Shown here: positions 996 through 16,019 of the stretch, one piece after another | Layout of the letters: the number at the start of each line of letters is the position of its first letter | How positions within the stretch are numbered: the first letter of the stretch is position 1 | NCBI GenBank assembly: GCA_005883575.1 | Contig: VBFH01000032.1 | Span: forward strand, 1-64,000 | Reading direction: 5' to 3' | DNA length: 64,000 bases | From: Chloroflexota bacterium | GTDB lineage: Bacteria; Chloroflexota; Dormibacteria; Dormibacterales; Dormibacteraceae | The notes under the pieces: generated by a model | Told to the model about the DNA's origin: nothing | Database searches by the model: none | What the model saw: only the letters and a program-made list of their open reading frames with translations | Made by a program: the position numbers and the translations under genes

Positions 996-1802
996 ATGAC
1001 CGTCTTACAGCGCGATGGGGTGAGACTGGCGTACGTCGATGAAGGCACGGGCGAGCCGGCCTTCGTGTTCATGCACGGCTGGACCTGCAACCGATCCTAC
1101 TTCAAGCCACAACACGACCACTTCAAAGCCAGGCATCGGGTCGTGTCCGTCGACCTTCGCGGCCACGGCGAGAGCGACAAGCCGAAGGGGCCTTACCCGA
1201 TCCGGCAGTACGCTGACGACGTGGCGTGGCTGATCGGCAAGCTCGGTCTCGACCGGCCGGTCGCGCTGGGCCACTCAATGGGAGGCGTCACTGCACTTGA
1301 GCTCGCGGCCGAGCATCCCCAATCCGTGCGCGCCATCGTGATGGTCGACCCGGCGCCATTTTTGTGGTCGCCCGATTTCATCAGCCTGCTCACGAACATG
1401 GCCGATTCCGCCGACGCGGGCAACCAACAGCCGCGTCGGGACTTCGTCAACATGCTGTTTCTACCGACATCGCCGGTCGACCTCAAGGAGCGAATCGTCG
1501 ATGAGATGTGCTCGGCTCCGGCCCACGTCGCCGCCGACGCGATGCGCGGGCTACTTTCTTATGACGGTGTGGCAGTGGCGAAAAAGGTGTCACTGCCCGC
1601 GTTGCACATCGCGGCTACCCCGCCACTCAACCCGCCTCACATGATGGCGGAGTGGCTGCCGCACGCCGTAAACGGCTGGACTGTGGGGGCGGGTCATTTC
1701 AACATGCTCGAGGCACCCAACCAGGTCAACGACATGATCGAGCGGTTTGTCGATCAGTACGTCATGCGTCCACAGCCGGCGGCCGCCGCCAGCGGCGGCT
1801 GA
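996..1802 (+). CDS. alpha/beta-fold hydrolase
   Basis: This 268-residue protein has the alpha/beta-hydrolase core: oxyanion-hole HGW (residues 27-29), the strand 'VVSVDLRGHGES' and the nucleophile elbow GHSMG with Ser94. The catalytic His is probably in 'GAGHFNMLEAP' near the C-terminus. The third triad member is less clear, because the usual D after 'LPALHIAA' is not obvious. ATG at 996 is preferred over the upstream frame start at 942 because AAGGAGGGG lies 5-11 bases before it. The protein has no signal peptide, so it is cytosolic. The substrate cannot be told. It stands alone between repeat copies A and B. Confidence 0.9.
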   Translation: MTVLQRDGVRLAYVDEGTGEPAFVFMHGWTCNRSYFKPQHDHFKARHRVVSVDLRGHGESDKPKGPYPIRQYADDVAWLIGKLGLDRPVALGHSMGGVTALELAAEHPQSVRAIVMVDPAPFLWSPDFISLLTNMADSADAGNQQPRRDFVNMLFLPTSPVDLKERIVDEMCSAPAHVAADAMRGLLSYDGVAVAKKVSLPALHIAATPPLNPPHMMAEWLPHAVNGWTVGAGHFNMLEAPNQVNDMIERFVDQYVMRPQPAAAASGG

Positions 1803-1828
1803 CAGGAAAGACTCGATCGGGTCGGCGG

Positions 1829-1848
1829 GGGACGGTCAGCCCCGTCCC
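1829..1848 (+). terminator. hairpin after the alpha/beta hydrolase
   Basis: The stem GGGACGG / CCGTCCC (1829-1835 with 1842-1848) closes a 6-base loop, 27 bp past the hydrolase stop. It is GC-rich and has no T-run. The rest of 1803-2071 holds repeat copy B and no gene. Confidence 0.5.
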
Positions 1849-1915
1849 TCGCTCCAGCGTTGCTTGCTGAGGTGCTGGCGCGGTACCACCTCCGGGCTGC
1901 CGGGGAGCCTTACCC

Positions 1916-1980
1916 GAGCCGATAACTGAATTCAACTCGGTCTTTGGTACCTGGGACGACAAACCCCGTCTCCCGCTCCA
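1916..1980 (-). repeat. dispersed ~65 bp repeat, copy B
   Basis: This copy has the same spacing as copies A and C and ends CCCCGTCTCCCGCTCCA. That end resembles the 3' end of typical bacterial tRNA-Gly genes, but there is no complete tRNA. The minus-strand reading keeps the shared peptide and then hits TAA. It lies between two unrelated genes. Confidence 0.75.
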
Positions 1981-2071
1981 GTTTGTGCCTTCACAGTCGC
2001 GGCACATGCGGCCGTTTGAGCGCCGCGTCAGGTCACACCGGCCAGCCGCGGAAAGAATTCGCCGATCGCCG

Positions 2072-2869
2072 CTACGGCGATGCCATCCGAGCCGCGCCAG
2101 AACCCACTCGGATACAGCCAATCGCTCTTCCACTCCGGCGGGTCGCGGCGGGCCTCAAAGTCAACCCAGCCTTTCGAAACGAGGCATGTCCGCGCGGTTG
2201 GAGGACGCCAATGTTGGCCAGAGTCATGATCAAGTGCCGGCGCTGAGACGCGTTGGAGGCCGGAAGGGCTGCCCGTATAGCCTCCGTCAGGCCGCCTGGC
2301 CGGAGCTGTGGGTTGTCCGCCGACGCTTCGCGCACGATGCCCAGCAGGCTGCGCAAGATGTCCCAATCGGCGGCGGCGGCAACCGGGTGATCCCCCGCTG
2401 CGAACTGCTCGAGGTCGAACGCGATGTAGTAAGGGTCGTGCAGCCAGACACCACCCCAATGGTGCCGCTCGAAACTGAACCGATTCCAGTCCGCGGGCTC
2501 ACGAACGAAAGATGCCGCCCCGCAGACCCCGCAAATCGCGAGATTGGACCGCTGGCGTTGGCGAAAGCCGTGGATTGGCAGCGCCCGGCCGACGATATAG
2601 CTGGCGAGTGCAGACCTCAGATCGAGGCGACGAGTCGAGAGGCTGGAAACGAAAGCTTCGACTACCTGTTCGAGCGCGATCCGGCGAACCAGTCCTCGGA
2701 TCTGCATGGCGAGTTCGTCGTGGCCGACCTGATGCGGATCAAACATTAAGCGGGAGTCGCGCGCGTACGCGAAGTCTTCGGCGGACGGCCATTGCGGGGG
2801 CACGCGCCAGCCACTCGACATCCAGAAAGTGGAAGTTAGGATTCGCAGTGCCTTGCGATCAACTGGCAT
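2072..2869 (-). CDS. hypothetical protein with a CxxC centre
   Basis: This 265-residue protein belongs to no family I recognise. The start is taken at 2869 because GGAGG lies 8 bases upstream (minus strand); the open frame reaches back to 2932. A single C-x-x-C motif ('AICGVCGAAS') is followed by an aromatic segment ('FERHHWGGVWLHDPYY'), which could be a small zinc- or nucleic-acid-binding centre. The C-terminal half is Arg/Ala-rich and helical. There is no membrane segment or signal. It is bounded on both sides by repeat copies B (downstream) and C (immediately upstream), which suggests it arrived as a module. Confidence 0.65.
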   Translation of the reverse strand: MPVDRKALRILTSTFWMSSGWRVPPQWPSAEDFAYARDSRLMFDPHQVGHDELAMQIRGLVRRIALEQVVEAFVSSLSTRRLDLRSALASYIVGRALPIHGFRQRQRSNLAICGVCGAASFVREPADWNRFSFERHHWGGVWLHDPYYIAFDLEQFAAGDHPVAAAADWDILRSLLGIVREASADNPQLRPGGLTEAIRAALPASNASQRRHLIMTLANIGVLQPRGHASFRKAGLTLRPAATRRSGRAIGCIRVGSGAARMASP

Positions 2870-3830: not shown

Positions 3831-4292
3831 GTCATGAGCGCACTCGCGCGGACCGAGGTCGCAAGAGCGCTATTACCGCTGGGTCCAGCGGCGGTGCAAA
3901 GGGGCCATGAGGTGCTAAGCCGCGTCGAGCTGATCCGAGTCACCGACCGTATCCTCCTGGATGCCGGCTCGCTGCTGCCTGCCCGGCTTCGCTCGCTGGA
4001 CGCGATTCACATCGCGACGATGCGCCAGCTTGGTGGCAGCCTTCGCCAGGTGGTGACCTACGACAGCCGAATGGCGGAGGCAGCTTGGGCGATGGGGATG
4101 ACCCACAGTGGCGCCCACCTGATTAGCCAGCCGAGCGCCTCCGAACCCAGTGTCAGCGGTAAATGTCGTCGACAGGCTCCGAGAGCCGCGGCCGACTATT
4201 TGAATGTCGCGCGCGGGATTGACCGCGCCCGTGGCGCTCTACTCGCCTCGTCGCAGGGTAGCCTGCAGCTAACCCACCCGACCCATAGGTAG
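3825..4292 (+). pseudogene. N-terminally truncated VapC / PIN-domain fragment
   Basis: From about 3837 to 4120 the translation matches the C-terminal two thirds of a VapC toxin: 'SALARTEVARALLPLG', 'RLRSLDAIHIATM' and 'VVTYDSRMAEAAWAMGM'. The first ~40 residues, which should carry the first catalytic Asp ('YLDSSALVK'-like), are missing, and a repeat-like fragment stands at that point. After 'GMTHSGAHLI' the frame runs on ~55 residues without family similarity, so the natural stop is lost too. No antitoxin gene precedes it. It is probably an inactive relic. Confidence 0.75.
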
Positions 4293-4991
4293 CTTGGCCG
4301 GGTCGCGACTCCACTCGACGTAGGAGTAGATGAACAGGATCACGATCACGACCAGCGCTCCGACCCCAAGCGCGGCGAAGCCAAGCAACGGGAAAACCGA
4401 CGTCGCTGCGGCTGTCAGGCCAACGGCGATGAAGAGCCGCCCGCCCAGGCGGTGGGTTCTATTCCATGAGCGTTCACTCGATAGGGTCCACGGCGTGCGG
4501 ATGCCAAAGAAGAAGTTGCTCCGAACCTTGCCCAGGTAGTTGCCGACGACGGCCAGCACAACGCCCACAGCAGCGGGCGCCAGCCGCGCCATAGTCTCGG
4601 ACCTCGCCAGCCCTGTTGCGCTGAACACAACGGCGCCCTGCACGGCCGCCATCAGAAGCAGAAGAGAGATCCACACTGCCGTGTAGGCAGCGCCGCTCAT
4701 TTGAAGGTTGCGCCGCCGAGGCTCTATTGAAGGTAGGAGCGCAAGTCCTGCCGATATAGCCGCGGTCAGAACTGGAACCAGCAGGAAGGCGAAGACGGCG
4801 TCTGCGTATCCGTTGGCGCGTCCCACCGCGTCCCAGTGGATGGCGACCCGTGCGCCGCGCGGCACCTGCCAGAAGCCGTACGCGGCGACACCGAGCTCGA
4901 ACGCCAACGCGACGGCCGTCACCACCAGCGCCGGCCCACGATGCAGCACCGGCTCTAGCGGCGGATCTTGAAGCTTTCCAGCAGCGCCCAT
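4269..4991 (-). CDS. SdpI-like / DUF1648 membrane protein
   Basis: This 240-residue protein has about six hydrophobic segments. It contains the DUF1648 feature 'VAIHWDAVGRANGYAD' and the SdpI-family feature 'NYLGKVRSNFFFGIRTPWTLSSERSWNRTHRLGG' (key residues GIRTPWT and W-x-x-THR). SdpI in Bacillus gives immunity to the SdpC killing peptide and works with the repressor SdpR. Here the gene overlaps an ArsR-type repressor gene by 37 bp, the same pairing. No sdpABC-like toxin genes are nearby, so it may respond to outside toxins or have another envelope role. Confidence 0.85.
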   Translation of the reverse strand: MGAAGKLQDPPLEPVLHRGPALVVTAVALAFELGVAAYGFWQVPRGARVAIHWDAVGRANGYADAVFAFLLVPVLTAAISAGLALLPSIEPRRRNLQMSGAAYTAVWISLLLLMAAVQGAVVFSATGLARSETMARLAPAAVGVVLAVVGNYLGKVRSNFFFGIRTPWTLSSERSWNRTHRLGGRLFIAVGLTAAATSVFPLLGFAALGVGALVVIVILFIYSYVEWSRDPAKLPMGRVG

Positions 4992-13345: not shown

Positions 13346-13849
13346 ATGGAGACGGAGATGAAGCGCACCCGCACCGTTACGTGGGAAGACCCTTTTGAGG
13401 TTCCGAAGGCGGCCGCCGGGCGCAGTGGCCTCGACCTTTTGAAGGACGTCTTCGAGGGTCGCTTGCCTCCGCCTCCGATCACCGCCACTCTTGGTTTCCG
13501 CGGCGTGCACGTCGAGGAGGGCAAGGCCGTCTTCGAGGGGGAACCGGGCGAGCACCTGTACAACCCGATCGGATCGGTCCATGGTGGATTTGCGATGGCG
13601 CTTCTCGATTCCGCGATGGGCTGCGCGATCCATTCGACGCTGCAGGCCGGAGAGCGTTACACCACGCTCGAGTTGAAGACCAACTTCGTGCGCCCGATCA
13701 CGGTCGAAACGGGACGCGTTCGCTGTGAGGGCGTGGTCGTGCATCGTGGGGCGACGATCGCGACAGCCGAAGGCAAGCTCGTCGCCGACAGCACCGGCAA
13801 GCTGCTCGCGCACGGCACGACGACATGCTTGATCGTTTCTCCCCCATGA
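13346..13849 (+). CDS. PaaI-type hotdog-fold thioesterase
   Basis: This 167-residue hotdog-fold protein carries 'NPIGSVHGGFAMALLDSAMG', the PaaI/4HBT active-site helix with HGG and the acidic residue in 'LDSAMG'. 'TLELKTNFVRPI' and 'EGVVVHRGATIATAEGKL' complete the fold. It probably hydrolyses an acyl- or aryl-CoA thioester in the cytosol. It overlaps the PhzF gene by 4 bp (ATGA), so they are translationally coupled. Confidence 0.92.
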   Translation: METEMKRTRTVTWEDPFEVPKAAAGRSGLDLLKDVFEGRLPPPPITATLGFRGVHVEEGKAVFEGEPGEHLYNPIGSVHGGFAMALLDSAMGCAIHSTLQAGERYTTLELKTNFVRPITVETGRVRCEGVVVHRGATIATAEGKLVADSTGKLLAHGTTTCLIVSPP

Positions 13850-14736
13850 GCCGGCCGATACGGATCGTCGATGTCTTCACCGACAAGCCTCTGGCGGGCA
13901 ACCAGCTGGCGGTCGTTCTTGACGGCAAGGACCTCTCCGCCAAGACCATGCAGCGAATCGCGCAAGAGATGAACTTCTCTGAAACAACTTTCGTGCTGCC
14001 GCCCGAGGATTCCAAGCACGCGGCGAAGGTGCGCATCTTCACGCCCGCGGCCGAGCTACCGTTCGCCGGCCACCCCACCATCGGCACGGCCTGGGTCCTC
14101 GCGGACGAAGGCATGGTCTCCGGCGACGCGACCGACTTCACTCTCGAGGAGAATGTCGGACCGGTCAAGGTTCGCAGCGTCAAGGAGCATGGCCGCGTCT
14201 TGTTCTGGATGACGCATCCGCCGCTGACCTTCGGCCCGGTGTTTCCGCACAAGGAGGTGGCGTCCGCGATCGGGGTTGAGGAGTCCGCGATCGTGCACGA
14301 CGTGCCGGCGCAGGTGGCGAGCACGGGCGCCCCGTTTCTCTTCGTCGCGCTGCGTGACGCGGGCGCCGTGGACTCGGCCGTGTCCGACTCGCCACGGGTG
14401 CGCAAACTTCTGCACGGCGATCGCGGTCATGGTGTGTTCTTGTTCGCGGCCGCCGGTGAAGGCCGGCTCTACAGCCGCATGTTCGCCGTCGACATCCCGG
14501 AAGATCCTGCGACCGGCTCGGCCAGCGGTCCACTCGGCGCGTTCGCGGTCAAGTACGGCCTGGTCGAGCGCGCGCCTCAAGTCTCAATCGTCAGTGAGCA
14601 GGGGGCGAAGATGGGCCGCCAGAGCTTCGTGCACATCGAGCTCACGTACGGCGAGTCGAAGGACGCCCCGGAGCGCATCGAGGTCGGCGGCGGCGTCATG
14701 CCCGTGCTGAGCGGGACGCTGGCAGATTTCGATTAG
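13846..14736 (+). CDS. PhzF-family isomerase-like protein
   Basis: This 296-residue two-domain DapF-fold protein has 'VDVFTDKPLAGNQLAVVLD' and the catalytic Glu in 'EMNFSETTFVLPPE', 'RIFTPAAELPFAGHPTIGTAW' and 'EDPATGSASGPLGAF'. PhzF isomerises a phenazine precursor. Most homologues have unknown substrates, and proline racemase shares the same fold. ATG at 13846 overlaps the thioesterase stop. Its own stop TAG overlaps the next start (GTG at 14736) by one base, tying it to the GrdB/PrdB-like gene. Confidence 0.92.
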   Translation: MSRPIRIVDVFTDKPLAGNQLAVVLDGKDLSAKTMQRIAQEMNFSETTFVLPPEDSKHAAKVRIFTPAAELPFAGHPTIGTAWVLADEGMVSGDATDFTLEENVGPVKVRSVKEHGRVLFWMTHPPLTFGPVFPHKEVASAIGVEESAIVHDVPAQVASTGAPFLFVALRDAGAVDSAVSDSPRVRKLLHGDRGHGVFLFAAAGEGRLYSRMFAVDIPEDPATGSASGPLGAFAVKYGLVERAPQVSIVSEQGAKMGRQSFVHIELTYGESKDAPERIEVGGGVMPVLSGTLADFD

Positions 14737-15602
14737 TGCAGGTCGACAGCTACAGGTTTCTGCCGCGCAGCTTCCGCCCTTTATATGAGGGGCGCGGGGC
14801 GTTCCCGGGCGAAGAGCATCCGGTGTGGGCGCCGTTCGAGAAGCGTCTGTCGGCGTCACGCATCGCGCTGCTGACCTCAGCCGGCATCTACCTGAAGACG
14901 AGCCAGCCCTCGTTCGACCTCGATGGCGAGCGGGAGCGCCCGGAATGGGGCGATCCTTCGTGGCGCGTCATCCCGTCGAACGCGAAGCCCGAGGACTTCG
15001 CCGTCGCGCACCTACATATAAATGACGAGGACCTGCTGGCCGATCCCGAGATTGCGCTGCCGGTGGGGATGCTGCGCCGGCTGGTCGAGGAGGGCGTCGT
15101 CGGCGCTGCGGCCGAGCGCCAAGTCGGGGTCATGGGCTACCAGGACCGGCGGCTGAAGGACTGGCGCGAGACCACTGCGCCGGCGATCGTCGGCCATCTG
15201 CGCGAGCAGGAGGCCGACGGGCTCATCCTCGCGCCGGCTTGACCCGACTGCTGCAGCAACGTGCCCGTGCTGGCACGGTGGATCGAGGCGGCGGGAATCC
15301 CAACTGTGACGGTGACCATGATGCCCGCGGTCGCTGAGGAGCGCCGGGCGCCGCGCATCGTCGGGGTCGAGTTCCCGTTCGGCCACGCGTTCGGCGTGGC
15401 GCACGACCGGTCCACGCAGCGGCATGTGCTCGAACTTGCGCTGCGCGTGCTGGCGGGGGCGTCGGGGTTCGGAACCCGAGTCGACCTCGACGTGGAGTGG
15501 CCGGTGCCGCTGCGGGAGGCCTACCGGGCCTGGCAGCCGAAGGAGCCGAGCCCGATCGTCAAGAAGATGTTGGAGGCGCGAGCGAATGCCGCAAGAAGCT
15601 GA
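14736..15602 (+). CDS. GrdB/PrdB-like reductase subunit with in-frame UGA (candidate selenoprotein)
   Basis: Two open frames, 14736-15242 and 15243-15602, are in the same frame and separated only by TGA at 15240-15242. Read through, they give 288 residues with the UGA at position 169, in 'DGLILAPA-U-PDCCSNVPVLARW' followed by 'IEAAGIPTVTV'. In D-proline reductase PrdB and glycine-reductase protein B, selenocysteine sits at this point, in D-G-x-x-L-x-x-x-U-x-x-C before an 'I-E-x-AGIPT' helix. The N-terminal 'IALLTSAGIYLK' and middle 'LRRLVEEGVVGAAAERQVGVMGY' also fit that family, as does the downstream 'GVEFPFGHAFG'. The UxxC redox pair (U169, C172) is preserved. A hairpin follows the UGA. The start is GTG, coupled to phzF. 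The alternative is a nonsense mutation splitting an old gene, but both halves keep family sequence. Confidence 0.8.
15260..15277 (+). promoter_or_regulatory. SECIS-like hairpin after the in-frame UGA
   Basis: CGTGCC / GGCACG is a perfect 6-bp stem with a 6-base loop CGTGCT. The stem begins 17 bases and the loop 23 bases after the UGA. Bacterial selenocysteine insertion elements are small hairpins placed roughly here, usually with a G in the first two loop positions, as seen. I see no clear bulged U, and in GC-rich sequence a 6-bp stem is weak evidence by itself. Confidence 0.45.
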
Positions 15603-15611
15603 GGACCCCTG

Positions 15612-16019
15612 TTACTTCGGGTCGAGTTTGATCGAGGCCGAGTTGATGCAGTAGCGAAGCCCGGTCGGCTCTGGCCCGTCGTCGAAGACGTGGCCCAGGT
15701 GCCCGCCGCAGCTCGCGCAGGTGACCTCGGTCCGGATCATGAAGTGCGAGTCGTCCACCGACTCCTCGATCGGCGCACCCTCCGCCGGCGCGTAGAAGCT
15801 CGGCCAGCCGCAGTGCGTGTCAAATTTGGTCTCCGACTCGAACAGCTTGGCCCCACAGCCCCCGCAGAGATAAACGCCAGGCGTCGTCGTGTTCCAGTAC
15901 TCGCCCGTGAAGGGCCGCTCGGTGCCCTTCTCGCGCAGCACGTGGTACTGGACGGGGGTTAGATCGCGCTTCCACTCGGCTTGGCTCTTCTGGACGGCGG
16001 CTTCGCTCTTCTTCTTCAC
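15612..16019 (-). CDS. msrB: peptide-methionine (R)-S-oxide reductase MsrB
   Basis: This 135-residue enzyme reduces methionine-R-sulfoxide in proteins. It has zinc-binding pairs 'CGGC' and 'CASC', 'THCGWPSFY' and the catalytic Cys in '[10 protein letters not shown]'. Here the catalytic residue is Cys, not selenocysteine. It is convergent with the GrdB/PrdB-like gene (9 bp apart) and cytosolic (no signal peptide). Confidence 0.97.

What the first reader, a model, noticed from the sequence alone, without database searches (positions are those of the whole stretch)
14736..15602. Candidate selenoprotein: UGA at the selenocysteine site of a GrdB/PrdB-like reductase
Sequence: two frames in the same phase are separated by one TGA (15240-15242). 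Read through, the joint is D-G-L-I-L-A-P-A-U-P-D-C-C, followed within 20 residues by the I-E-A-A-G-I-P-T helix. Established knowledge: in glycine/betaine reductase protein B and D-proline reductase PrdB, selenocysteine lies in a U-x-x-C motif after a D-G-x-x-L strand and before an I-E-x-AGIP helix. Inference: UGA is decoded as selenocysteine here, in a GC-rich, probably aerobic soil-type bacterium where these mainly clostridial enzymes are not classical. The downstream half keeps clean family sequence, which argues against a dead gene.
Basis: partly seen in the sequence, partly recalled or inferred. Interest (0 to 1): 0.88.

Follow-up and report, generated by a model that had tools for sequence, protein, structure and literature searches.

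The report
Soil bacterium PrdB-like selenoprotein
A gene in an uncultured soil bacterium uses the stop codon UGA to insert the rare amino acid selenocysteine into the active site of an enzyme related to clostridial proline and glycine reductases; this is well supported by comparison, but selenoproteins of this family were already known from sea and gut bacteria.

Summary
In detail: one in-frame TGA (15240-15242, residue 169, U-P-D-C) joins two halves of one gene, 14736-15602. The selenocysteine reading is strongly supported. (1) The same genome holds selA, selB (same contig, 5.5 kb past the window), selD (itself with an in-frame TGA) and a tRNA-Sec(UCA). (2) All 21 full-length homologues from the same order (71-81% identical) carry TGA at this column. 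More distant homologues examined have TGA or Cys there, nothing else. (3) Directly after the TGA, codons lose synonymous variation (0.13 against a median of 0.45), exactly over a hairpin (15260-15277) placed like a bacterial SECIS. Most other Sec homologues have analogous hairpins; 15 of 16 Cys homologues do not. (4) The read-through protein folds as one confident domain (pLDDT 94.5).

It is homologous to D-proline reductase PrdB (TIGR04483, E 4e-34) but below that model's cut-off. No GrdE/PrdA-type partner was found in the genome, so "proline reductase" is not supported; the substrate is unknown. The host probably belongs to Candidatus Dormiibacterota. PrdB-type UxxC selenoproteins are already known to be abundant in marine metagenomes, so this is a new member, in a distinct UPDCC subfamily, of a known kind.

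The parts
14736..15602 (+). PrdB/GrdB-like selenoprotein gene, GTG start, 288 aa with UGA read as selenocysteine, TGA terminator at 15600-15602
   Evidence: confident single-domain model
15240..15242 (+). in-frame TGA, predicted selenocysteine 169
   Evidence: TGA in 21/21 full-length homologues of the order, TGA or TGC/TGT in all distant homologues examined; aligns with the Sec codon of a clostridial PrdB
15249..15254 (+). Cys172 and Cys173; Cys172 is the second half of the U-x-x-C motif and is invariant across the 50-sequence alignment; Cys173 is specific to the UPDCC subfamily
15260..15277 (+). predicted bacterial SECIS hairpin CGUGCC-CGUGCU-GGCACG, apical loop 15266-15271 beginning 23 nt after the UGA
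   Evidence: almost no synonymous change here; kept in subfamily members of other phyla; better than synonymous shuffles; only one-sided pair changes
13825..14736 (+). PhzF-family isomerase-like gene whose TAG stop overlaps the GTG start (TAGTG); neighbour conserved within the order, possible translational coupling

Best explanation
The gene encodes a stand-alone, single-domain selenoprotein of the PrdB/GrdB superfamily. Shown by comparison: UGA 169 is kept as a selenocysteine codon under selection, with a SECIS-like hairpin just downstream, in a genome with a complete selenocysteine system. Inferred: SelB with GTP and Sec-tRNA(Sec) binds the hairpin and inserts Sec at the UGA, while the same codon at the end of the gene terminates. 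Inferred from the UxxC motif and from PrdB/GrdB chemistry: the selenolate of Sec169, at the N-terminus of a helix, is the attacking or redox-active group, Cys172 resolves the intermediate as a selenenylsulfide, and a thioredoxin-type donor regenerates it. No GrdE/PrdA-type (pyruvoyl) partner was found, so the substrate is probably not D-proline, glycine, sarcosine or betaine handled in the clostridial way; it remains unknown. The confidence given is for the selenoprotein part; the redox-pair mechanism I would put at about 0.6.
For: Sec machinery in the same genome: tRNA-Sec with anticodon UCA, selB, selA (selA and selB overlap in one operon), selD with its own in-frame TGA at GAGUACK. TGA at the same column in 21 homologues at 71-81% identity and in subfamily members from Actinomycetota, Acidobacteria and Anaerolineae at 39-65% identity. 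Cys codons at that column in all 16 TGA-less distant homologues examined. Lowest synonymous change of the gene right after the UGA, 0.13 against a median of 0.45 and 0.27 for the lowest window elsewhere. SECIS-like hairpins in most TGA members, 17 or 23 nt after the UGA, absent from 15 of 16 Cys members. Confident continuous fold. Homology to PrdB with the Sec columns aligned. No PF09338 partner in the genome, with the search positive in 9 other genomes of the phylum.
Against: No protein-level evidence. Isolated folding of the downstream RNA is not significantly more stable than shuffles, and the hairpin shows no two-sided compensatory changes among the close sequences. Three order-mates that carry the gene (G005, G008, G015) had no selB at E 1e-60; their assemblies are drafts, though G005 is estimated 95% complete. 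The catalytic roles and the electron donor are inferred from relatives, and no solved structure resembles the model.
Confidence: 0.95

Rival explanations
1. The gene is a true D-proline reductase PrdB subunit (or GrdB) working with a pyruvoyl partner in Stickland-type amino acid reduction.
For: Best family match is TIGR04483 PrdB, E 3.8e-34; the family-invariant residues are shared with a clostridial PrdB annotated in RefSeq.
Against: Score 118 against an equivalog cut-off of 300; no PF09338 partner in the own genome or in the same-family genomes shown, while the same search finds it in 9 other genomes of the phylum; no partner-subunit gene recognised among the neighbours examined.
Confidence: 0.04
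2. The TGA is a real stop and the gene is a pseudogene, or the TGA is a sequencing or assembly error.
For: Only that the TGA breaks the standard reading frame.
Against: Same TGA in 21 homologues from separate species and assemblies, with conserved protein sequence and synonymous substitutions on both sides; the column is otherwise Cys, the expected Sec counterpart.
Confidence: 0.01
3. Two separate proteins are made: translation stops at the TGA and restarts at the GTG of codon 176 (15261).
For: A downstream ORF of 113 aa exists from GTG 15261.
Against: Cys homologues are single continuous proteins; U169 and C172 form one conserved motif; the predicted fold is one domain with the site between a strand and a helix.
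Confidence: 0.01
4. UGA is read through here by a general suppressor or a different code (for example UGA = Trp or Cys), not as selenocysteine.
For: A stop codon is clearly read through.
Against: The gene itself ends in TGA, as do 8 of 21 homologues; homologues have Cys, not Trp; a full Sec system and a SECIS-like hairpin are present.
Confidence: 0.01

Closest known systems
D-proline reductase selenoprotein PrdB (TIGR04483)
   Same: Homologous over residues 27-254, Sec at the aligned column in a UxxC motif, family-invariant residues shared
   Different: About 32% identical, below the equivalog cut-off, extra C-terminal segment, UPDCC instead of UGTCH, no GrdE/PrdA-type partner found in the genome
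Glycine/sarcosine/betaine reductase selenoprotein B (GrdB, GrdF, GrdH; PF07355, TIGR01918)
   Same: Homologous to their C-terminal half, up to and including the UxxC region
   Different: Lacks the N-terminal half of the roughly 430-residue proteins; below every family cut-off; no PF09338 partner
PrdB-type UxxC selenoproteins of marine metagenomes (PMC1088965, PMC2398784)
   Same: PrdB homologues with Sec in UxxC in marine microbial communities
   Different: Those sequences were not compared directly here; this clade is from soil Dormibacteria and some Actinomycetota, Acidobacteria and Anaerolineae
UGSC family selenoproteins (NF041046)
   Same: Weak local similarity around the Sec site (E 0.11)
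   Different: Not significant; much shorter family (147-position model)

Membership tests
Bacterial selenoprotein | in-frame UGA conserved in homologues, replaced only by Cys | tested here: met
Bacterial selenoprotein | Sec machinery selA, selB, selC, selD in the genome | tested here: met
Bacterial selenoprotein | SECIS hairpin just downstream of the UGA with a small apical loop containing G | tested here: met
   the thermodynamic z-score alone is not significant
Bacterial selenoprotein | selenium present in the protein at that residue | not testable with these tools
   needs mass spectrometry or 75Se labelling
D-proline reductase PrdB | score above the TIGR04483 cut-off | tested here: not met
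   118 bits against 300
D-proline reductase PrdB | Sec in UxxC at the PrdB column | tested here: met
D-proline reductase PrdB | PrdA-type pyruvoyl partner in the genome | tested here: not met
   no PF09338 match in the own draft genome; that PF09338 also covers PrdA is own knowledge and PrdA's own model was not searched
GRDB (PF07355) | score above the gathering cut-off | tested here: not met
   19.4 bits against 22, profile positions 220-345 of 347 only

The most novel reading that the evidence does not exclude
The UPDCC clade is a distinct stand-alone selenoenzyme family of soil bacteria (Dormibacteria, with members in Actinomycetota, Acidobacteria and Anaerolineae) that uses the PrdB/GrdB selenolate centre without a pyruvoyl partner for a reaction not yet described.
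Probability: 0.55. Interest if true: 0.55.

Novelty: new member of a known kind. Interest (0 to 1): 0.38.

Why it matters
Reading TGA as a stop cuts this enzyme into two fragments at its active site, here and in 21 related genomes, so an oxidoreductase and its selenium requirement are easily missed in a soil lineage. A PrdB-like selenoprotein without its usual partner subunit also raises the question of what this catalytic centre does on its own.

Tried and rejected
Energy of the isolated hairpin: not significant, so the SECIS claim rests on synonymous constraint and comparison. Pair covariation in the hairpin: uninformative because the sequence barely varies. First structure model from 20 close sequences: poor, pLDDT 59; replaced by the 50-sequence model. 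Solved-structure searches by sequence and by fold: no convincing relative. Gene neighbourhood as a clue to function: conserved only inside the order; the window's neighbours do not recur beside the gene in the other phyla, and the flanking ORFs there, read by eye, show no common partner. selB co-occurrence: uninformative because 34 of 42 order genomes have selB. Scan of the window for further interrupted frames: 251 crude candidates, most expected from chance; not followed up. Literature search for Dormibacter and selenocysteine together: no paper in the library.

Full report
The observation. The window contains, in one frame from GTG 14736 to TGA 15600-15602, a single internal TGA at 15240-15242; read as selenocysteine it gives 288 residues with the site APA-U-PDCC. 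The start agrees with MxVDSY starts in relatives.

The genome can make selenocysteine. The window is contig C39:1-64000 of a 3.6 Mb draft genome estimated 95.5% complete. On the same contig, 5.5 kb beyond the window end, lie selA (69463-70515, PF03841 E 4e-126) and selB (70587-72410, TIGR00475 345 bits, above its cut-off of 242). A tRNA-Sec with anticodon UCA is on C42. selD is on C86 and itself carries an in-frame TGA in the motif GAGUACK, the usual Sec site of SelD (the last point from own knowledge). So UGA appears to be used for Sec at least twice in this genome.

The TGA is conserved. Of 42 genomes of the order, 24 have a match; all 21 full-length homologues besides the window, at 71-81% identity, carry TGA at the aligned codon. 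A scan of named genomes gave 31 loci: Candidatus Dormiibacterota and 'Chloroflexi' MAGs, and more distant ones in Actinomycetota, Acidobacteria and Anaerolineae (39-65% identity), again with TGA wherever the column could be read. The organism is placed in Candidatus Dormiibacterota because the same-genus genome G016 has a contig of the same length as JAMXLM010000005, a record titled Candidatus Dormiibacterota (inference). Across the phylum most of the more distant matches also carry one TGA. Sixteen of those without a stop were read: all have TGC or TGT at the column. In a tree of 50 sequences, the 13 Cys rows included form one group.

The RNA after the TGA is under selection. Among the 22 close genes, pairs with the same amino acid use different codons in a median of 45% of cases per 14-codon window, but in 13% just around and after the UGA; the lowest window elsewhere is 27%. 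The quiet stretch coincides with the hairpin CGUGCC-CGUGCU-GGCACG at 15260-15277, whose loop has a G in its first two bases and begins 23 nt after the UGA. The same hairpin persists in subfamily members of other phyla, with A to G changes that keep a U-G pair; one Anaerolineae sequence keeps five of six pairs. Most more distant Sec relatives have a different hairpin with its loop 17 nt after the UGA; only one of 16 Cys homologues has a comparable hairpin. Stability of the isolated RNA is not significant, and true covariation is lacking, so the SECIS is supported by constraint and position and not by energy.

What the protein is. It matches TIGR04483 PrdB (E 3.8e-34) and, more weakly, the C-terminal half of GrdB-type proteins, but below every curated cut-off. 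It aligns with a clostridial PrdB with the two Sec residues in one column. Fourteen positions are invariant across 50 relatives, among them R77, H92, D103, U/C169, C172, E184 and R207. The predicted structure is one confident domain, pLDDT 94.5, with residue 169 just before a helix (170-185) that follows a strand (162-166); nothing in the PDB resembles it convincingly. No GrdE/PrdA-type subunit was found in the draft genome, and the search was shown to work in nine other genomes of the phylum.

How it probably works. Sec insertion by SelB at the UGA is the well-supported part. That Sec169 and Cys172 form a redox pair, with Sec as the nucleophile, is inferred from the UxxC motif and from the reductases. 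The substrate is unknown. The PhzF-like gene overlapping the start (TAGTG) and the msrB on the other strand are conserved neighbours in the order but not beyond it, so they are weak clues.

Known or new. Selenoproteins of the PrdB family with UxxC have been reported in large numbers from the Sargasso Sea and the Global Ocean Sampling data (PMC1088965, PMC2398784), and Sec use in aerobes is established (PMC5029168). No paper in the library links Dormibacteria with selenocysteine. The finding is therefore a well-supported new member, possibly a new subfamily, of a known kind.

Noticed in passing
genome contig C86, L020 (match about 1501-2412, minus strand): selD of the same genome has its own in-frame TGA (GAGUACK), a likely second selenoprotein.
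   Followed up: partly
L048 (G006) and L047 (G024): A genome of the same genus and one of the same family carry a second, distant PrdB-like gene with an in-frame TGA (UTTC and UPVC motifs); G006 also has the UPDCC form.
   Followed up: partly
L083 / L046 / L049 (G020, contig C33): In one relative only the first 53 and last 68 residues of the gene match, so this copy may have lost its middle, including the Sec site, or is misassembled.
   Followed up: no
window 13825-14738: The PhzF-like gene ends in TAG overlapping the GTG start of the selenoprotein (TAGTG), which suggests coupled translation.
   Followed up: partly
window 15612-16019, minus strand: A methionine sulfoxide reductase B gene (Cys form) lies tail to tail with the selenoprotein gene and stays nearby in most order-mates.
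   Followed up: partly
L131 (Peptoclostridium acidaminophilum plasmid), 3938-4651: A Sec-containing gene annotated prdB has no annotated prdA among its neighbours in an 8.6 kb stretch, so partnerless PrdB-like selenoproteins may occur in clostridia too.
   Followed up: no
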